The translations under genes and the position numbers were made by a program. From a virus, in the IMG/VR virus record IMGVR_UViG_3300024358_000009, positions 1 through 64,000 of that record: a stretch of DNA of 64,000 nucleotides; one strand, written 5' to 3'. This document shows, piece by piece, positions 44,601 to 57,175 of this stretch; position 1 is the first letter of the stretch; each line of letters starts with the position of its first letter. The notes beneath the pieces were generated by a model. It ran no database searches, was not told the DNA's origin, and saw nothing but the letters and a program-made list of their open reading frames with translations.

Positions 44601-45012
44601 AAAAAGATCATTTGAATCAAGATTTGGTGGCGGTTGGATTTCTGCTGCACAATATCTAGCAGAAACAATGTGTGCGAGAAACGCAAAGTTTAACCGCACA
44701 GAATTACCACCAAGATTTTGGAATGATAAACCTTGGAAAAGTTATTATCTTTATCAGATAAAGCTTGCTAATTCTTTGTTGAAGAACTACTCTCATCAAA
44801 TAATTTTTCAGGCATTGAGAACGCCAAATGGCGTAAAAGTTATATCATTAAAATCTCCATACTTGAAAAGGGAAATACAATTCATAGAAAAGAAAAATAG
44901 CCAACAGCAAATAACCAAAACAGAAGCTTCTGAAATGGAACAGAAATCAACTTTTGTGCAAAAGAAATCTCTTAAAAGAAAGCTAGAGGAATTAGATGGC
45001 AAAGAAGAGTGA
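44572..45012 (+). CDS. conserved replication-region protein, 146 aa
   Basis: AAQYLAETMCARNA, PPRFWNDKPWKSYYLYQIK and ANSLLKNYSHQIIFQALRT match a protein near phage recombination genes of unknown function. The C-terminus is basic and helical. It overlaps RecA by 17 bases. Confidence 0.7.
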   Translation: MEDQYNKRTEKRSFESRFGGGWISAAQYLAETMCARNAKFNRTELPPRFWNDKPWKSYYLYQIKLANSLLKNYSHQIIFQALRTPNGVKVISLKSPYLKREIQFIEKKNSQQQITKTEASEMEQKSTFVQKKSLKRKLEELDGKEE

Positions 45013-46048
45013 AAAAATAGATAGCAAAAGCGAAGACTATCTTGAAAGAGTAATGGCCGAAGTTAATAAGCAATATGCTGATGGAGTGGCTATTACTGCT
45101 GACAATTTATTAGATAATCCACCAGAAGTTGTTCCTGTAAGTCCTGCATTGGATTTAGGGCTACACGGAGGAATTCCAGAAGGTTCTTGGGTTACATGCA
45201 GTGGTCATCCAAAAACAGGCAAGACTCTAACCTCGTTATCTTTTGCTGCTGAATGTCAAAAACAAGGAAGGCATGTTTATTATTTAAATATTGAAGGCCG
45301 TTTAAAGTCCATGAACATTCATGGAATTGATGGTTTAGACCCAAAGAAATTAACTATATACCGTTCTGTTCCTGAGAAGATTCTTACGGCCAAAGATTAT
45401 TTAAATCTTGCCATGAAAGCCATTCAGACACATCCAAGATCATTGATTATCATTGACTCTGTAAGTTCGCTTTGTGATGAACGAGAAATGGATGAAGGTA
45501 TTGGTTATGAAAATCGTGGTTCTGGAAATAAAATGTTTGCTGGTTTTTGTAGACAGGCATCAAATTTAGTTCCGATTCAAAAAGTTATAGTCTGGTCTAT
45601 TATGCACTTGACTCAAAACCAAGGTATGTTTGGTGGATTTATAGAAAAAGGATCAAGAGCATTGCAATATCAAGCAGATGTACAATTGAGGGTGAAATAC
45701 GATAAAGCTTGGAATGTAAATCAAGAAGGCAAAGAAGTTCAAATTGGTCAGCAAGTACATTGGCTAATTGAATCTTGTGCTTTAGGATCTCCAGGCATGG
45801 AGATAGACAGTTATATTAGATATGGTGTTGGCATTGATAAAACATTTGAAATCATAAATTTAGGCATGGAACTTGGGCTTATAATCAAGTCTGGTGCTTG
45901 GATGAATATGGACTTCTTAAAAAGACATATTAAAGAAGATGAAATACCAAAAGTTCAAGGTGCTGAAAAACTTTACAAGTTGTTAAAAGAAAAGCCAGAG
46001 TGGCTATCTCTTTTGCAAAAAGAAATCAATGACATACTAAGACCATGA
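44996..46048 (+). CDS. recA: RecA/UvsX-family recombinase
   Basis: ATP-driven strand exchange on ssDNA. Walker A GHPKTGKT at residues 70-77, an ALDLGLHGGIPEGSWVTCSG RecA-type start of the ATPase core, RSLIIIDSVSSLCD as Walker B, and a MHLTQNQGMFGGF L2-like segment. 350 residues. It lacks the long C-terminal tail of RecA, as in UvsX. The start of the replication and recombination block. Confidence 0.9.
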   Translation: MAKKSEKIDSKSEDYLERVMAEVNKQYADGVAITADNLLDNPPEVVPVSPALDLGLHGGIPEGSWVTCSGHPKTGKTLTSLSFAAECQKQGRHVYYLNIEGRLKSMNIHGIDGLDPKKLTIYRSVPEKILTAKDYLNLAMKAIQTHPRSLIIIDSVSSLCDEREMDEGIGYENRGSGNKMFAGFCRQASNLVPIQKVIVWSIMHLTQNQGMFGGFIEKGSRALQYQADVQLRVKYDKAWNVNQEGKEVQIGQQVHWLIESCALGSPGMEIDSYIRYGVGIDKTFEIINLGMELGLIIKSGAWMNMDFLKRHIKEDEIPKVQGAEKLYKLLKEKPEWLSLLQKEINDILRP

Positions 46049-46918: not shown

Positions 46919-47300
46919 CAAGGCAATACAAGAACAAGACTTTATATATGTTGAACAAGCGTTATCAACATTAATCGGAACTAATGTTTCGGAAAAACCG
47001 GTAAAGAAAAAAACAGTAAAGAAAACTAAAGTTGAGTCGAATAAGAGTTCTGGAAGTGATTTTGTTAATAAATTTGTGGATGATTTAAGCATTCATCCAG
47101 AATTAATAAGCAAAACACCAAAGAAGATTAAAAAGCAGCACAGACCTGAATTTGTTCCAAATACTGTAGATGCTAGTTGCAGTAAATGTGGAGCAAAAGA
47201 AATTGTAGATAAAGATGAAATTAATTCTTTATCAAGGTTGGCCGAAGGTCAATACGCATTTACATGTGCTAAATGTCTTAAAAGGAATATATCAAGATGA
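46896..47300 (+). CDS. zinc-ribbon protein near helicase, 134 aa
   Basis: A Lys-rich linker leads to VDASCSKCGAKEIVD and FTCAKCLKRN, a four-Cys ribbon at the C-terminus. It may be a ssDNA or helicase accessory factor. It overlaps the DnaB start by 4 bases. Confidence 0.7.
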   Translation: MTIIDLLNKAIQEQDFIYVEQALSTLIGTNVSEKPVKKKTVKKTKVESNKSSGSDFVNKFVDDLSIHPELISKTPKKIKKQHRPEFVPNTVDASCSKCGAKEIVDKDEINSLSRLAEGQYAFTCAKCLKRNISR

Positions 47301-48778
47301 TGCATGATCCAGCAGCTGAAAGGGCGGTTTTATCTTCTTATTTTCAACATGGCAAAGATGCCTATATTGAATCTTGCGATATCATTGACGATGAATGTTT
47401 TTTAATAGACTCTAATAAAATAGTTTTTAAATGCTTAAAACATTATTATCAAGATGAAAATAGCAAAATAGATATTCCAACTTTTTTATCTATAGCCAAT
47501 TCACTTGGTTATAAAGATTTTTTTGAATCTAAAGACGAAAAAAAGTATTTAAACAGTCTTACTATACTTCCTGTAGAATTAAAAAATACAAGAAAATTAG
47601 CTTCTAAATTAGCTAAGCTAAAAATAGCTAATAATCTTAAAAAAGAAATAGATATTGCAAGTACAGAATTACAAACTGTTACTGGCGATGAAACGCTTTC
47701 TTCAATACTTGGAATAGCAGAACAAAGAATATTTGAGTTTACGCTAAATCTTTCAAACTCTGAAGATTCTACGCCAAAAGTTATTGGCGATGGATTAGAT
47801 GAATATGTTGAACACTTAGAAAATAACCCAATTACACAAATAGGTATACCAAGTGGTTTTCCTATATACGATCAATGTATTGGAGGTGGGTTCAGGCCAG
47901 GAAGCGTAAATGTTATAGGTGCTAGAATGAAGACAGGAAAATCATTCTTTGGAGATGCAGTTGCCTTAAATGTTGCAGATAAAAATATTCCTGTTTTAGT
48001 TTTAGATACAGAAATGTCAAATAAAGATCATTGGCATAGAATGCTGGCTTGCCTCTCTGGAGTTAAAATAAATGATATTGAAAGTGGTAAATATTCTCAA
48101 ATAGCAGAATCTAAAAACAGAATTCATCAAGCAAAAGAAAAGCTAAAGTCTATTCCTTATTTTTACAAATCAATAGCTGGACAACCTTTTGAAGAAACAT
48201 CTTCTATTATGAGAAGGTGGATAATGCAAAAAGTTGGTTTAGATGAAAATGGATTAGCAAAACCATGTTTAGTTATTTTTGATTACATTAAACTAATGAG
48301 CGATGATTCTATATCTAAAAACATAGCTGAATATCAAGCTTTAGGATTTTTGATGACTTCTTTGCATAACTTCTGTGTAAAATATGGAGTTCCATGTTTA
48401 GCTTTTACTCAATTAAATCGTGATGGTATAAACAGAGAAGATACCGATGTAGCTTCTGGATCAGACAGAATATTATGGTTATGTAGTAATTTTTCTATAT
48501 ATAAAAGAAAATCTGAGGAAGAATTAGCCGAAGAAGAAGCTGCTGTTAATGGCAAAAGGTATAATTTAAAACTCATACCAATTGTCAGTAGGCATGGCAG
48601 TGGATTATCGCAAGGCGATTATATTAATGTTTTGGCTGAGTATGAATTTGGCAGAATTAAAGAAGGCCCAACAAGAAACAACTTCCATTCTTTGAGAAAT
48701 ACAAATACTGGATTTACTGTTTCTGAAGAGGTATTAAGAAATGAACCAATTGACTTTTTTGGATCAGACGAAGATTAA
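47297..48778 (+). CDS. dnaB: replicative DNA helicase, DnaB family
   Basis: Unwinds the fork as a hexamer. N-domain PAAERAVLSSYFQHGKDAYI, then GIPSGFPIYDQCIGGGFRPG, Walker A GARMKTGKS at residues 208-216, VLVLDTEMSNKDHWHRML, Walker B CLVIFDYIKLM, and AFTQLNRDG (arginine-finger region). 493 residues, full length. It overlaps the primase gene by 38 bases. Confidence 0.94.
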   Translation: MMHDPAAERAVLSSYFQHGKDAYIESCDIIDDECFLIDSNKIVFKCLKHYYQDENSKIDIPTFLSIANSLGYKDFFESKDEKKYLNSLTILPVELKNTRKLASKLAKLKIANNLKKEIDIASTELQTVTGDETLSSILGIAEQRIFEFTLNLSNSEDSTPKVIGDGLDEYVEHLENNPITQIGIPSGFPIYDQCIGGGFRPGSVNVIGARMKTGKSFFGDAVALNVADKNIPVLVLDTEMSNKDHWHRMLACLSGVKINDIESGKYSQIAESKNRIHQAKEKLKSIPYFYKSIAGQPFEETSSIMRRWIMQKVGLDENGLAKPCLVIFDYIKLMSDDSISKNIAEYQALGFLMTSLHNFCVKYGVPCLAFTQLNRDGINREDTDVASGSDRILWLCSNFSIYKRKSEEELAEEEAAVNGKRYNLKLIPIVSRHGSGLSQGDYINVLAEYEFGRIKEGPTRNNFHSLRNTNTGFTVSEEVLRNEPIDFFGSDED

Positions 48779-49853
48779 CTTCATATCTGAAAAGATTTTT
48801 GAAAATATTCAAGTCTTTTTAGAAATGTTTGATGTTAAATATAAGAATATTAATAATTATATTTCTGGTCCATGTCCAATACATGGCGGAGATAATCCTA
48901 CTGCATTTTGTATGTATTTAGATGGAAACACATTAAAAGGTAATTGGTGTTGTTACACACATCATTGCGAAGAAGTTTTTAAACCAACTCCATTTGGTTT
49001 TATTCGTGGTGTTTTATCTAACAGAGAAAATAATTGGACTGGCCAAGCAAAAGATATCAAATACAGTTTTGGTAAAACATATGATTTTTGCCAATCTATT
49101 TTAAAAATAAATGAATCAGATATTCCAGAGCTTAGCGATATTGAAAAAAAGAAGTTTTGTAATGACATGAAAATTTTTGAAAAGAAAAAGAAGCATTTTA
49201 AAGGCTGGAATCTTCATAATGTAATTTCAAGTATGATAATTCCATCTCCATATTTTTTAAGTCGTGGATATAAACAAGAAACATTGGAACATTTTTCAGT
49301 AGGTGTTCCTAAGAATAATGATGGCATATTTAAAGATAGATCAATTGTTCCTGTAATAGATAGAGATGGAATACATGTTGTCGGTTTTACCGGCAGATCA
49401 AACTACGAGAAATGCGATAAATGCAATCAATATCATCAGGCTTCATGCAATTCTAAAAATCCTAAATATATATATTCAAAATGGGCAAATAACAGTGGTT
49501 TTGCAAAAGAAAGGTATTTATACAACTTACATAATGCTTTGAACGCAGCTAAGTTCAATAAAACGCTTATTATATGCGAAGGGCCAGGAGATGTTTGGTC
49601 TTTGCACGAAAAAGGTATAGAAAATGCGGTTGCTATCTTTGGTATATCTTTAACGGATTCTCAACAAATTATCCTAGAAACATGTGATATAACAAAGATT
49701 ATCTTGTTGTTAGATAATGATGAAGCTGGTATAAATGCTAAACAAAAGATTAAGTCTTTGCTCAGTAGATTTTTTAATGTTACTATTCCTATTTATGAAG
49801 GCAAAGACCCTGGATCTACCACATCAGATTTAAGGAATATTTGTAATGTGTAA
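48741..49853 (+). CDS. dnaG: DNA primase with Toprim domain
   Basis: Zinc finger CPIHGGDNPTAF...CCYTHHCEE at residues about 45-80, then TLIICEGPGDVWSLHEKGI (Toprim Glu) and IILLLDNDEAGINA (Toprim DxD). 370 residues, shorter than bacterial DnaG because it lacks the helicase-binding tail. It makes primers with the adjacent helicase. Confidence 0.92.
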   Translation: MNQLTFLDQTKINFISEKIFENIQVFLEMFDVKYKNINNYISGPCPIHGGDNPTAFCMYLDGNTLKGNWCCYTHHCEEVFKPTPFGFIRGVLSNRENNWTGQAKDIKYSFGKTYDFCQSILKINESDIPELSDIEKKKFCNDMKIFEKKKKHFKGWNLHNVISSMIIPSPYFLSRGYKQETLEHFSVGVPKNNDGIFKDRSIVPVIDRDGIHVVGFTGRSNYEKCDKCNQYHQASCNSKNPKYIYSKWANNSGFAKERYLYNLHNALNAAKFNKTLIICEGPGDVWSLHEKGIENAVAIFGISLTDSQQIILETCDITKIILLLDNDEAGINAKQKIKSLLSRFFNVTIPIYEGKDPGSTTSDLRNICNV

Positions 49854-52309: not shown

Positions 52310-54223
52310 ATGTCAAAGTGGATTCCTTTGCATGTACATTCACAATATTCTTTGCTCGATGGATTATCTTCTGCTGAAAAAATAGCAGATAGATTATCTG
52401 AACTAGAATTAAAGGCTTGTGCTTTAACAGATCATGGCACATTATCTGGTTTGATTTCTTTTTATAAGAAATTAAAATCTAAATCTATTAGTCCGATTCT
52501 TGGTTGCGAATTTTATATTTGCGAACAAGACCCAACTATTAAGAATGACGAGAATAAAAAACTCAGTCACTTATGTGTTCTTGCAAAGAAAGATGCTGGA
52601 TGGTCAAGTTTAGTCAAAGCGAGTTCGGTATCTAACTCTGTTGATAACTTTTATAGAAAACCAAGACTTGATCTAAAAACATTGTCATCAATTGCAAATG
52701 GCAATTTTATAGTTTTTTCTGGGCATCCAGGGTCTGATCTTGGAAACTGTCTATTCACAGATTTAAATGAAGCTTATAGGGCAGAGACATACGAAATAGC
52801 GAAGTCTTTAGTTCATAAAGATTGGGAAAAAAGAGCAACTGATCTTGCATATAAATATGCAGATTTATTTGGTAAAGAAAATTTTTTCTTAGAAATACAA
52901 CTTATAGATTCTGAAAATATTCCGGCAACAAAGATTATATCTAAAGCATTAAGGCATATTGCTAAAAAGCATGGTTTTAAAACTGTAGCAACTCCAGATG
53001 CTCATTATGCAAGAAAAGAAGATGCTATAGACCAAAGAGTATTATTAGCCTGTTCTATGAAGAAAACTTTAACGGAAATTAGAAACCATATAAACAACGA
53101 TGAAGACTTTGGTTTTTCTGGATTTTTTAAATCAAACAATTATCATATTCCGTCTGTAGAAGAAATTTCTGCTTTAAATCAACCAGAAGAGTTAGAAGCC
53201 ACTTTAGAAATATTTGAGAAGTGCAAAGATTACAATCTATTGCGTAATCCGATGCTTCCAAAAATTGCTGGAGAAACATCTTCTTCTGCTGAAATTAAGA
53301 GGCTTTGTAGAGAAGGTTGGAAAAAAAGATTCTCTTTCAAAAAAGAAGATTCAAGATTTAATCAATATGGTGATCGTGTTACCAAAGAGCTAGAAGTTAT
53401 AACAGGTGCTGGGTTAGAAGATTATTTTTTAATTGTTTATGATTATTGTAATTGGGCAAAACAACAAGGCTGGTTAGTTGGAAAAGGTCGTGGTTCCGGT
53501 GCTGGATGTATGGTTAGTTATTTATTAGGAATAACAGAAATTAATCCAATTGAAAACGGATTGCTTTTTGAAAGATTTTATAACTCAGGTAGAAATGCAC
53601 CAGGTCGTATATCATTGCCAGATATTGATTGTGATTTTCCAATATCGAAAAGAGAAGAAATTATAACTTATATCAAAAACAAATATGGTTCTGATAAAGT
53701 TTCTCAGATATCTGTATTTACTAGAATGCAGGGTCGTGGTGCTTTAAAAGATGTGTTAAGAATACACGCAGCTTGTTCTTTTGAAGAAAGTAATTTAATT
53801 ACTAAACACATTCCAGATGAAGCTGAAATATCAGAAGAATTACAAGAAATGCGTGATGAAGGACAAGAACCATCAATTATTAAGTGGGCTTTAGAAAATT
53901 GCCAAAAAGAACTTGAACCTTATTGCAAATTAAAAGATGATGGCAAACTTGAAGGCGAATATGCAAAGTTTTTTGCTCAAGCCATAAGAATGGAAGGCAC
54001 AAAAAGATCTCAAAGCAAACATGCTGCTGGAATAGTCATAGCTTCTCAGAATTTACAAGATATATGTCCTATGATTTATGATAAAACATCTCATGAAAGC
54101 ATAGCTGGTCTTGAAATGTCAGACTTAGAATCTATTGGACTTGTTAAGTTTGATATACTTGGAGTAGCTGTTTTGGACAAACTTATGGGAGTTCAAAAGC
54201 TTCTTGCTGGAGAAGATTTATGA
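52310..54223 (+). CDS. dnaE: DNA polymerase III alpha, N-terminal part (PHP and palm)
   Basis: The first 300 residues are the PHP domain (PLHVHSQYSLLDGLSSAEKI, ALTDHGTLSGLISFYK). The palm follows: KGRGSGAGCMVSYLLGI, PDIDCDF with catalytic Asp440 and Asp442, GALKDVLRI, and LVKFDILGV giving the third acid, Asp615. The frame ends 22 residues later. In intact DnaE the next part is AVFQLES and the fingers, here found in a separate gene at 55151. The two encode 1178 residues together, near full DnaE length. No intein sequence is seen at the break. Confidence 0.95.
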   Translation: MSKWIPLHVHSQYSLLDGLSSAEKIADRLSELELKACALTDHGTLSGLISFYKKLKSKSISPILGCEFYICEQDPTIKNDENKKLSHLCVLAKKDAGWSSLVKASSVSNSVDNFYRKPRLDLKTLSSIANGNFIVFSGHPGSDLGNCLFTDLNEAYRAETYEIAKSLVHKDWEKRATDLAYKYADLFGKENFFLEIQLIDSENIPATKIISKALRHIAKKHGFKTVATPDAHYARKEDAIDQRVLLACSMKKTLTEIRNHINNDEDFGFSGFFKSNNYHIPSVEEISALNQPEELEATLEIFEKCKDYNLLRNPMLPKIAGETSSSAEIKRLCREGWKKRFSFKKEDSRFNQYGDRVTKELEVITGAGLEDYFLIVYDYCNWAKQQGWLVGKGRGSGAGCMVSYLLGITEINPIENGLLFERFYNSGRNAPGRISLPDIDCDFPISKREEIITYIKNKYGSDKVSQISVFTRMQGRGALKDVLRIHAACSFEESNLITKHIPDEAEISEELQEMRDEGQEPSIIKWALENCQKELEPYCKLKDDGKLEGEYAKFFAQAIRMEGTKRSQSKHAAGIVIASQNLQDICPMIYDKTSHESIAGLEMSDLESIGLVKFDILGVAVLDKLMGVQKLLAGEDL

Positions 54224-54468
54224 AAAAGAAAGAAGACTTATTGGAAGAAATCAAAGCACTGGAAGAAATGCTTGAGTCAAAAGATGTAATAATAAAAGAA
54301 TCAATTAATATTATGAAAGCTTTGGTTTTCAAATTTGGCGGTAAAGTTCTGTTAAAACCTGAGTTTATTCAAGCAGCAAAAAGTAAGGATAATTATGTAG
54401 ATATAAAATATGACGAATCTGGGCGTTTGAAACTTGAAGTTAAAGAAGTAGATGAATTAAGAAAGTAG
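54220..54468 (+). CDS. coiled-coil protein within split polymerase, 82 aa
   Basis: MKKKEDLLEEIKALEEMLES is a coiled coil, followed by a small domain (VFKFGGKVLLKPEFIQAAKS, then VDIKYDESGRLKLEV). ATGA overlap with the polymerase first half. The conserved middle may bind the polymerase, but I have no family support. Candidate scaffold that joins the two halves. Confidence 0.7.
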   Translation: MKKKEDLLEEIKALEEMLESKDVIIKESINIMKALVFKFGGKVLLKPEFIQAAKSKDNYVDIKYDESGRLKLEVKEVDELRK

Positions 54469-54475
54469 GAACATT

Positions 54476-55141
54476 GTGAATAATTCGACTATATTAGTTT
54501 TTGATTTTGAAACTGGTAGTGTCAATCCAGAAACTTGTGAAGTTATTCAAGTAGCTGCTATGGCACTGCATCCAAGAAGTCTTGCTGAGTTAGGGCAATA
54601 CACAAGTCTAATTAAGCCAAGAGACTTTTCTAAGCTTGAAAAAGAAGCTTTAGAAATTAATAAAAAGAGCATAGAAGAACTTGAAAAAGCACCAGATTTA
54701 TCTATTGTTTGGAAATCTTTTACATCTTTTATTAAAAAATATAACCCAAAACCTGGCAATACATTTTTTGCACCTATTGCTGCCGGAAAAAACATAAGAC
54801 ACTTTGACATGATTATCATTAATCGTTTAGCTAGAGAATTTGGCGATTGTGATAAATATGGAAAACAAAACTTATTTAATAAAAGAAGCGTTTTTGATTT
54901 GGATGATTTTGTTTTTTATTGGTTTGATAATTCAAATGAGTTGCGTGATCACAAGATGGACACTCTTAGAGAGTATTTTGGTATGTCTACTGAGAATGCA
55001 CATGATGCTTTAGTAGATGTTAAGCAAACAGCAACGCTATTGAAAAACTTTATACAGCTTCATAGAAAAGTAGCTGCCAAAGTTAATTTTAAAAACTCAT
55101 TAAGTGATAACATAGAAAGAACTAAGGGTTTCTCTGCTTAA
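54476..55141 (+). CDS. dnaQ: DnaQ-like 3'-5' exonuclease (proofreading)
   Basis: GTG start after AGTAGGAACATT. FDFETGSVNPETCEVIQVAA gives Asp10 and Glu12 (exo I), NIRHFDMIIINRLA exo II, and AHDALVDVKQTATLL exo III (H-x4-D). 221 residues. It sits between the halves of the polymerase gene, which suggests assembly of a proofreading core. The EVI and DHKMDTLREYF segments resemble phage-specific forms. Confidence 0.9.
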   Translation: MNNSTILVFDFETGSVNPETCEVIQVAAMALHPRSLAELGQYTSLIKPRDFSKLEKEALEINKKSIEELEKAPDLSIVWKSFTSFIKKYNPKPGNTFFAPIAAGKNIRHFDMIIINRLAREFGDCDKYGKQNLFNKRSVFDLDDFVFYWFDNSNELRDHKMDTLREYFGMSTENAHDALVDVKQTATLLKNFIQLHRKVAAKVNFKNSLSDNIERTKGFSA

Positions 55142-55150
55142 AGGATATTT

Positions 55151-56776
55151 ATGGAAGATTTTTATAAATTTGATTGTGGCTGTAAATGGCCAATACTTAA
55201 AAATTCTGAAAACGGCAAGATGCCAAAATTAAAAATAGATTTACAAAATCTACCAGATTGTGATTTAGCTTGGAAAATTTTTGCTAATGGTGACACAAAA
55301 GGCATTTTTCAATTAGAATCCCATCTTGGTAAACAATGGTCTAAAAAACTAAGACCCAAAAATATGGAGCATCTTTCTGCTCTTGGAGCACTTTTAAGGC
55401 CAGGTTGCCTTCGAGCATTAGACGAAGAAGGCGTTTCAATGACGGAGCATTATTGCAAAAGAGTAAATGGTTTTGAAAAAGTTCCAAGTTATCATGCGTC
55501 AGTAGATAATATCTTAAAACCTACATATGGTGCTTTAGTTTTTCAAGAACAGGCAATGCAAATTGCACAAGCTGTTGCAGGATTTAATCTGCAAGAGGCT
55601 GATGTTTTAAGAAAAGCAATTGGCAAGAAGAATACTCAAGAAATGGCCAATTGCAAAAAAATGTTTATTGATGGTGCTAAAAAAGCAGCTGTTATCTCTG
55701 ATGAACAAGCAGAGGAATTATTCGGTTGGATTCAAGCAAGCCAAAGATATTCGTTCAACAAAAGTCACAGTTCAGCGTACGGATATACAGGATATGACAC
55801 GGCTTATTTAAAAAGTCATTTTCCAGTATATTTCTTTACGAGTTGGCTTTATTACGCAAAAGACAAAGCTGATAGTTCACAAGAAGTTGCAGATCTTATA
55901 GACAATGCAAAACTTTATAACATAAATGTATATCCACCAGACATTAGGATGTTAAAGTCTAATTTTTATACTGACGGTGAATCTATATGGTTTGGCCTAT
56001 CTGATATTAAAGGTATAGGTACATCACAAATCAATAAACTTATTAACTGCTTTAACTCTCAGTCAGAAAAGATTGATAGTTGGATAAAATTTTTAATAAA
56101 TTGTTCTGATTCTATTTCTTCTACATCAGTATCTAAAATAATAGCAGTAGGCGGTTTTGATTGGACTGGTGAATACAGGCAAAAGTTAATAGCAGAATTA
56201 GAAACATGGAATCAATTAACTCAAAAAGAAAAAGAATGGATTAGAGAAAATTGCAAAGATTATAAAAATATAAAAGACTGTATACTTCTTCTTGCTAAAC
56301 CGAAAAAAGAAGGTGGTGGTTGCAGTAATAAAAATCGTGTTTCATTAGTTAACGATTTGTATAATATGTTAGAAAATCCACCAACTACTTATAATGATCC
56401 AGTCACTTGGAAAGTATGGGCAGAAAGAGAAAGTTTAGGCATAGCTCTGTCCTGTTCATTAACCGATGGTTCAGATAATCAATCTGCAAATACAACATGT
56501 AAGGAATTTTATTTTGGAAAAACTGGATTTATGGTATTGTCAGTTGAAATATTAGATGTTAAAGAAATAATTACTAAAAAAGGAAAAGATCCCGGTAGAA
56601 AAATGGCTAGATTAACAGTTTCTGATTCTAGCTGTAAAATAGATAATGCGATTATCTTTCCAGATGCTTATGAGCTATTTGTAGACAAAATTTTTGTAGG
56701 AAACACTGTTTTAATTCGTGTCGAGCGTGACAGAAAAACAGATGCTATGGTTCTCAAAGATATTAACCAACTGTAA
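55151..56776 (+). CDS. dnaE: DNA polymerase III alpha, C-terminal part (fingers, OB)
   Basis: Begins MEDFYKFDCGCKWPI, then TKGIFQLESHLGKQW as in DnaE AVFQLES, SALGALLRPG, VFQEQAMQIAQAVAGF, ADVLRKAIGKKN, RYSFNKSHSSAYGYTGYDTA and an OB-fold end (ARLTVSDSSCKIDNAIIFPD). It carries fingers, a helix-hairpin-helix region (FGLSDIKGIGTSQI) and OB domain. It lacks the PHP and catalytic acids, so it needs the gene at 52310. The CGC in its start may be a metal site or a junction relic. Confidence 0.94.
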   Translation: MEDFYKFDCGCKWPILKNSENGKMPKLKIDLQNLPDCDLAWKIFANGDTKGIFQLESHLGKQWSKKLRPKNMEHLSALGALLRPGCLRALDEEGVSMTEHYCKRVNGFEKVPSYHASVDNILKPTYGALVFQEQAMQIAQAVAGFNLQEADVLRKAIGKKNTQEMANCKKMFIDGAKKAAVISDEQAEELFGWIQASQRYSFNKSHSSAYGYTGYDTAYLKSHFPVYFFTSWLYYAKDKADSSQEVADLIDNAKLYNINVYPPDIRMLKSNFYTDGESIWFGLSDIKGIGTSQINKLINCFNSQSEKIDSWIKFLINCSDSISSTSVSKIIAVGGFDWTGEYRQKLIAELETWNQLTQKEKEWIRENCKDYKNIKDCILLLAKPKKEGGGCSNKNRVSLVNDLYNMLENPPTTYNDPVTWKVWAERESLGIALSCSLTDGSDNQSANTTCKEFYFGKTGFMVLSVEILDVKEIITKKGKDPGRKMARLTVSDSSCKIDNAIIFPDAYELFVDKIFVGNTVLIRVERDRKTDAMVLKDINQL

Positions 56777-56788
56777 GGAGTTTTTTAA

Positions 56789-57175
56789 ATGAATGAGTGT
56801 ATCTTTTTGGGTAATTTCGTTCGTGATCCAAGGCTTGTACAAACAAGTAATGGAGAAACGGTAGTTAATTTTACATTAGCTGTTAATCCTCCTTATAAGC
56901 GTGAAAAGGGAGATAAAAAGGGAACTGCATATATTGATTGTGAAGCATGGGAAAAAACAGCCGAATTAATTAATAAAAATTTTTCTAAAGGTTCAAGAAT
57001 TTTAGTACAGACATTTGCTAAGAGTGATTCTTGGAAAGATGAAACAACTGGAGCTAAAAGGAATAGAATTAAGTTTGTAGTAACAAGATTCCATTGGCCA
57101 GCACCAACAAGTCGTCAAGAACGAGAAGAAAAAGAAGAAGATGTTTTAGCAGAAACTAATTGGTATCCTGTTTAA
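56789..57175 (+). CDS. ssb: single-stranded DNA-binding protein
   Basis: OB-fold protein: MNECIFLGNFVRDPRLVQTS, ETVVNFTLAVNPP and YIDCEAWEKTAELINKNF follow bacterial SSB. 128 residues; the acidic C-terminal tip of typical SSB is replaced by EEKEEDVLAETNWYPV. It protects ssDNA for the polymerase. 12 bases after the polymerase second half. Confidence 0.93.
   Translation: MNECIFLGNFVRDPRLVQTSNGETVVNFTLAVNPPYKREKGDKKGTAYIDCEAWEKTAELINKNFSKGSRILVQTFAKSDSWKDETTGAKRNRIKFVVTRFHWPAPTSRQEREEKEEDVLAETNWYPV

What the first reader, a model, noticed from the sequence alone, without database searches (positions are those of the whole stretch)
52310..56776. DNA polymerase III alpha split in two genes with its proofreader in between
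The first gene ends 22 residues after the third catalytic Asp (LVKFD); the second begins just before TKGIFQLES. Between them are a coiled-coil protein and a DnaQ-like exonuclease. The halves total 1178 residues. All frames are intact, junctions are ATGA or have good starts, and no intein is seen, so the polymerase is likely assembled from separate chains. The break differs from the cyanobacterial split-intein DnaE site, which lies further on near the fingers. The exonuclease gene or a lost mobile element may have caused the break.
Basis: partly seen in the sequence, partly recalled or inferred. Interest (0 to 1): 0.75.

Follow-up and report, generated by a model that had tools for sequence, protein, structure and literature searches.

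The report
Phage replicase built from two chains
A large, uncultured group of aquatic phages makes its main DNA-copying enzyme (DNA polymerase III alpha) as two separate proteins, with the gene for its proofreading exonuclease lying between the two halves; every relative examined has the same arrangement, so the enzyme very probably works as an assembled pair.

Summary
In a phage record, a DnaE-type DNA polymerase III alpha is encoded as PHP+palm/thumb (637 aa) and fingers+HhH+OB (541 aa); between them lie a small variable ORF and a DEDDh (DnaQ-like) exonuclease. Both halves model well alone (pLDDT 91) and match Pol III alpha. No intein, intron or frameshift signal joins them, and nothing is missing at the break. 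It is no local accident: all 239 viral loci fetched from this clade (at least 35 clusters at 75% identity) are split, none fused; where both halves were in reach, dnaQ lies between them, almost always just upstream of the second half. The clade is one branch (support 100). All core parts are under strong purifying selection. Mycobacterium phages Cuke and Fowlmouth and Rossellomorea phage phiT1 are broken at the same palm-fingers linker without an exonuclease gene; Cuke's relative Indlulamithi (68% identical) is unsplit, so fission there is derived and separate. The sister strain in the same record carries a second, different break: a split intein with a Vsr-like homing nuclease. Best reading: a stable two-chain Pol III alpha plus DnaQ, a new variant of the known split phage polymerases.

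The parts
52310..54223 (+). dnaE N-half (polN): PHP + palm/thumb, 637 aa, all three catalytic Asp (D438, D440, D615) and intact PHP metal ligands
   Evidence: PF02811 1.5e-34, PF07733 1e-73 to the profile's last position; TIGR00594 positions 1-570; AF2 pLDDT 91.0, Foldseek to Taq Pol III alpha 4.7e-46; 3 Asp invariant in 34 of 34 clusters
54220..54468 (+). small coiled-coil ORF, 82 aa, ATGA-coupled to polN; lineage-specific passenger
   Evidence: no Pfam or PHROG match; replaced in relatives by unrelated ORFs, UDG, a glycosyltransferase or nothing; dN/dS 0.30 against 0.05-0.08 for its neighbours
54476..55141 (+). DnaQ-like DEDDh 3'-5' exonuclease, 221 aa, GTG start
   Evidence: PF00929 3.2e-16; D10, E12, D111, H176, D181 invariant in 29 clade members; dN/dS 0.059
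55151..56776 (+). dnaE C-half (polC): fingers + HhH + OB-like C-terminus, 541 aa
   Evidence: PF17657 8.6e-41, PF14579 4.4e-9; TIGR00594 from position 577; AF2 pLDDT 91.4, Foldseek to Pol III alpha chains 6.1e-24
55151..55225 (+). N-terminal extension of polC (YKFDCGCKWPI hairpin) seen in part of the clade only, upstream of the conserved IDLxNLP...TKGIFQLES start
   Evidence: invariant YKF.CGC..PI within the window's subclade; absent in several clusters; strands 4-6 and 12-17
54221..55150 (+). the fission joint: intercistronic stretch between polN stop and polC start; no intein or ribozyme signal
55762..55763 (+). empty intein site (FNK^SHSS) that is occupied in the sister strain (L029) by IntN, a Vsr-like homing nuclease gene and IntC
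   Evidence: blastn break at 55759/55762; TIGR01445 intein_Nterm 34 bits over cut-off; flanks compared
56789..57175 (+). single-strand DNA binding protein, next gene of the replication cluster
   Evidence: PF00436 2e-22
47297..49853 (+). DnaB-type helicase (47297-48778) and DnaG-type primase (48741-49853) of the same gene cluster
44996..46048 (+). RecA/UvsX-like recombinase of the same cluster

Best explanation
This is a phage-encoded replicative C-family DNA polymerase whose alpha subunit is permanently encoded as two polypeptides. Shown: the gene is divided in the variable linker between the last palm helix and the fingers; both chains are complete and conserved across a large clade; no splicing element is present. 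Inferred: polN (PHP-palm-thumb, all catalytic Asp) and polC (fingers, HhH, OB-like end) are co-translated from one operon and bind each other through the native palm-fingers interface to give an active alpha; the DnaQ encoded between them supplies proofreading as the epsilon counterpart; the clamp, not found in the record, comes from the host. Origin (inferred): simple gene fission at a permissive linker by stop-and-reinitiation, as seen in its simplest ATGA form in phages Cuke and Fowlmouth, followed by gene insertion into the gap.
For: All 160 + 79 clade loci split, none fused; where both halves were in reach dnaQ lies between them. 35 clusters at 75% identity form one branch with support 100. 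The joint lies in the same linker throughout: 19-30 residues after the third Asp in all but one cluster. Catalytic Asp and DEDDh residues invariant. dN/dS polN 0.079, polC 0.046/0.083, dnaQ 0.059, like DnaB 0.066. High-confidence models of each half match Pol III alpha. No other DnaE or PolA polymerase and no beta clamp in the record. No intein, intron or frameshift route. Plaque-forming phages Cuke and Fowlmouth are split at the same linker with ATGA overlap while Indlulamithi (68% identical) is fused; phiT1 likewise split. Precedent: split T4-type gene 43A/43B products of Aeromonas phage 25 co-purify and have polymerase activity (PMC2988022).
Against: No biochemical evidence; assembly was not modelled because no multimer prediction was available. 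No cultured member of the window's clade was found (best isolate or metagenomic phage hit about 33% identity). The host polymerase could in principle do the copying. Association of this DnaQ with polN is assumed from operon position, not shown.
Confidence: 0.85

Rival explanations
1. Origin by a lost mobile element: the permanent break is the relic of a 'fractured gene' (split intein plus free homing nuclease) or homing-gene insertion whose intein and nuclease were later lost, leaving two chains.
For: The same gene is a repeated target of split inteins in this clade: FNK^SHSS in the sister strain and GRG^S in L026 and L126. Homing genes are known to split phage genes (PMC2988022).
Against: The permanent break sits in a linker of variable length (19-43 residues after the third Asp, 24-68 before G51 of polC), whereas the inteins seen here sit in conserved active-site motifs. 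No intein or homing-gene remnant is found at this joint in the loci whose joint was read. Cuke, Fowlmouth and phiT1 show the same break without any such element.
Confidence: 0.15
2. The halves are joined covalently after all, by trans-splicing, programmed frameshifting or ribosome bypass.
For: Other breaks in the same gene in relatives are trans-splicing inteins. Fowlmouth has a GGGAAAA heptamer just before its stop.
Against: About 0.93 kb holding two complete genes separates the halves here; polN and polC carry no intein motifs while the same scan finds the sister strain's intein; no Rfam ribozyme; in L080 and L175 the three genes overlap end to end, leaving no room for an intron. Cuke lacks the heptamer.
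Confidence: 0.03
3. The polymerase is a decaying pseudogene or an assembly or sequencing artefact.
For: The record itself joins two related strains, so assembly of the contig as a whole is imperfect.
Against: Same split in 239 viral loci down to about 40-50% identity, strong purifying selection, all catalytic residues kept.
Confidence: 0.01
4. Independent roles: the exonuclease and PHP-palm chain act in repair, and the chains do not form a replicase.
For: Relatives carry a uracil-DNA glycosylase in the slot between the halves.
Against: Palm and fingers are both needed for catalysis in known C-family polymerases (established knowledge, not tested here); the genes sit in a replication cluster with DnaB, DnaG, RecA and SSB; no other DnaE or PolA gene in the record.
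Confidence: 0.04

Closest known systems
Mycobacterium phages Cuke (gp86/gp87) and Fowlmouth (gp85/gp86), Rossellomorea phage phiT1 (gp20/gp18)
   Same: DnaE split in the same palm-fingers linker, 21-23 residues after the third catalytic Asp, no intein; both halves annotated as DNA polymerase III alpha in GenBank
   Different: not in the window's clade; no exonuclease between the halves (ATGA overlap, or a 49-aa ORF); Cuke's relative Indlulamithi is fused, so that fission is derived and separate; no paper discussing these splits was found
Split T4-type DNA polymerase gene 43A/43B (Aeromonas phages 25, 44RR)
   Same: phage replicative polymerase in two chains without splicing; reported to co-purify and be active (PMC2988022)
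   Different: B-family polymerase, other break position, few phages, associated with a seg homing gene or an intercistronic sequence
Cyanobacterial DnaE-N/DnaE-C split intein
   Same: C-family alpha in two genes
   Different: halves carry intein fragments and are trans-spliced; break about 200 residues further on; here no intein at the permanent joint
'Fractured genes' of Dassa et al. 2009 (split inteins plus Vsr-like free homing endonuclease; from memory, paper not held)
   Same: the second break in the sister strain (L029) and those in L026 and L126 have this layout
   Different: does not apply to the window's own joint
Pbunavirus dnaQ-dnaE pair (KPP22M1 ORF048/049)
   Same: dnaQ directly upstream of the polymerase gene
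   Different: dnaE unsplit, dnaQ ahead of it rather than between halves

Membership tests
C-family DNA polymerase III alpha (DnaE) | PHP, palm NTPase, fingers, HhH domains in order with three catalytic Asp | tested here: met
   domains spread over two chains
C-family DNA polymerase III alpha (DnaE) | single polypeptide | tested here: not met
DnaQ/epsilon-type DEDDh exonuclease | D, E, D, H, D catalytic residues | tested here: met
DnaQ/epsilon-type DEDDh exonuclease | binds the PHP domain of alpha | not testable with these tools
   no complex prediction available
Split phage replicative polymerase, non-spliced (43A/43B-like) | two intact ORFs, no splicing element | tested here: met
Split phage replicative polymerase, non-spliced (43A/43B-like) | chains co-purify as an active enzyme | not testable with these tools
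   needs the bench
Split-intein DnaE (cyanobacterial type) | N- and C-intein fragments at the break | tested here: not met
   only one intein N-terminus in the record, in the other strain copy
Fractured gene (split intein + free Vsr-like HEG) | intein halves flanking a free-standing homing nuclease | tested here: not met
   not met at the window's joint; met in the sister strain L029 (TIGR01445 34 bits, Vsr-like 21 bits)
Group I intron interruption | catalytic intron RNA | tested here: not met

The most novel reading that the evidence does not exclude
A major uncultured phage lineage runs on an obligate two-subunit C-family replicase in which palm and fingers are on different chains. The palm-fingers linker of DnaE is a repeatedly used natural fission point (window clade, Cuke/Fowlmouth, phiT1). 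In the sister strain the enzyme starts as three translation products, two of which are trans-spliced by a mobile split intein before pairing with the third.
Probability: 0.5. Interest if true: 0.75.

Novelty: new variant of a known kind. Interest (0 to 1): 0.6.

Why it matters
Replicative polymerases are among the most constrained enzymes. A clade-wide, long-maintained division of the catalytic core at a palm-fingers joint, reached separately at least in Cuke/Fowlmouth, would show that the fold tolerates and keeps a two-chain form. It gives natural split points for structural and engineering work. It also warns that annotation pipelines and marker-gene trees that expect one dnaE will miss or mis-score these phages. 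The same gene also collects mobile split inteins at active-site motifs, so it is a good system for asking how gene fission and split inteins are related.

Tried and rejected
Intein or trans-splicing at the window's joint: no motif in polN or polC. Intron: no Rfam hit but a sub-threshold miRNA match. Assembly error of the split: rejected by the survey. Coiled-coil ORF as a conserved tether: rejected, the slot is variable or empty. Common origin with phiT1: not resolved. phiT1 grouped with unsplit Moorella and Finn phages in one tree (support 97), beside the clade with support 56 in another, and an AU test did not reject grouping it with the clade (p 0.40). Including Cuke as well also was not rejected (p 0.31), but Cuke's fused relative Indlulamithi makes separate fission the simpler reading unless the latter re-fused. 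Literature searches found no paper describing this split; the Dassa 2009 paper is not held.

Full report
What was checked. The window is the first 64 kb of a 206,326-base virus record. The four ORFs of the finding are intact and where stated. The first carries PHP and the palm domain to the last position of its Pfam profile; the last starts at fingers profile position 18 and continues through HhH. Against the full-length family model TIGR00594 the first half covers positions 1-570 and the second 577-1019, so nothing is lost between them. In E. coli numbering the break falls near residue 577, in the linker after the helix that follows catalytic D555. AlphaFold2 models of the two halves are confident (pLDDT 91.0 and 91.4) and match Taq, E. 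coli and M. tuberculosis Pol III alpha; polN ends just after helix 620-632.

How general it is. Related loci were fetched from IMG/VR with polN, polC and alignments of each. In 160 loci from the first alignment scans no ORF holds both halves. The halves were always separate where both were in reach, and a dnaQ homologue was found between them in every such case. In 79 further loci fetched with the most diverged members the result is the same; the single 'unsplit' flag there is a separate ORF elsewhere on the contig. Contigs recur between scans, so loci exceed contigs; the first set contains at least 92 distinct polN+polC pairs in 35 clusters at 75% identity. Only the best 80 hits of each scan were kept, so more distant members were not seen. 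In contrast, 47 of 53 other phage loci and 90 of 93 bacterial or phage comparison loci hold both halves in one frame, at least in part. The clade is one side of a branch with support 100 and a long stem. All 34 polN examined keep the three catalytic Asp and 28 keep all nine PHP ligand positions; DnaQ keeps D, E, D, H, D in all 29 examined. Between the window and the ~80% identical second copy, dN/dS is 0.05-0.08 for polN, polC and dnaQ, as for DnaB and SSB, but 0.30 for the small ORF.

The gap. Only dnaQ and polC stay together (usually overlapping or within 30 bases). The stretch between polN and dnaQ holds a coiled-coil ORF in the window's subclade and, in others, two unrelated small ORF families, a uracil-DNA glycosylase, a PD-(D/E)XK-like ORF, a glycosyltransferase-like ORF, or nothing at all. 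In L170 and L178 an additional ORF also separates dnaQ from polC. So the coiled-coil protein is a passenger, and the gap behaves as an insertion slot.

Same break elsewhere. Rossellomorea phage phiT1 (gp20, 49-aa gp19, gp18) and Mycobacterium phages Cuke (gp86/gp87) and Fowlmouth (gp85/gp86) are split 21-23 residues after the third Asp. In Cuke and Fowlmouth the two genes overlap as ATGA with nothing between. Their relative Indlulamithi, 68% identical over the N half, has one fused gene, so fission there is derived and separate from the window's clade unless Indlulamithi re-fused. phiT1's placement is unresolved. Neither case needs an exonuclease or homing gene to explain the break. Other phage dnaE genes are interrupted at other places by inteins, introns or domain-boundary splits.

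A second kind of break in the sister strain. The record contains a second, ~80% identical copy of this region at an offset of 146,060 bases, most simply two co-occurring strains of a ~146-kb genome run together by assembly (inference). That copy has the same polN/dnaQ/polC layout, and its polC is broken again at FNK^SHSS by an N-intein (TIGR01445, 34 bits), a free-standing Vsr-like nuclease gene and a C-intein. The same layout appears on further contigs, 3300024513 and 3300024514. L026 and L126 have split inteins with a free nuclease-like gene at GRG^S in polN, degraded in L026, and L209 has an undivided intein in polC. These are recognisable as 'fractured genes'; the window's joint is not.

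How it most likely works. Shown: two conserved chains, conserved active sites, no splicing element, clade-wide maintenance. Inferred: co-translation from a replication cluster with DnaB, DnaG, RecA and SSB, non-covalent assembly at the palm-fingers interface, proofreading by the adjacent DnaQ, and a host clamp, since none was found in the record. The nearest tested precedent is gene 43A/43B of Aeromonas phage 25, whose products co-purify and have polymerase activity (PMC2988022).

Verdict. The proposed cause of the break is not. Novelty lies in the clade-wide fixed split of a C-family alpha with its exonuclease gene between the halves and in the repeated use of one fission point; split phage polymerases as such are known.

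Noticed in passing
G000:C1:149300-206326 (L034, L035, L036, L029): The record carries a second ~75-85% identical copy of the window's region at an offset of 146,060 bases; probably two strains of a ~146-kb phage joined in one contig.
   Followed up: partly
L029:11161-14156: Sister-strain polC interrupted at FNK^SHSS by a split intein flanking a free-standing Vsr/DUF559-like nuclease gene; the window's strain has the empty site at 55762/55763.
   Followed up: yes
L026:1196-4028 and L126:3065-6154: polN fractured at GRG^S by split inteins with a free-standing nuclease-like ORF between (frame-broken in L026).
   Followed up: partly
L209:10522-12693: polC with an undivided intein after RPG, a third intein site in the same gene.
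   Followed up: partly
L425:2995-6616 (Mycobacterium phage Riparian gp74-76): dnaE divided at the PHP/palm boundary; gp74 is annotated as sliding clamp but is a PHP domain (Pfam 1.7e-36).
   Followed up: yes
L042:4861-8461 (Cellulophaga phage phiST gp044/gp045): DnaE split inside the palm domain after FERFLNSG, with extra unmatched tails at the joint; cause not examined.
   Followed up: no
L041:2507-6120 (Bacillus phage vB_BpsS-140): An unannotated dnaE in two overlapping frames, broken after the PHP domain.
   Followed up: no
L423:4770-4800 (Fowlmouth): GGGAAAA heptamer immediately before the stop of the N half, a possible -1 slip site; absent in Cuke.
   Followed up: no
window:13457-14737: DUF1501 protein (Pfam 1.5e-92) with no PHROG match in a phage genome.
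   Followed up: no
L426:3926-8296 (Bacillus phage vB_BauM_KLEB27-3): dnaE interrupted at the FQ[IL]E motif with an HNH gene between the pieces.
   Followed up: no
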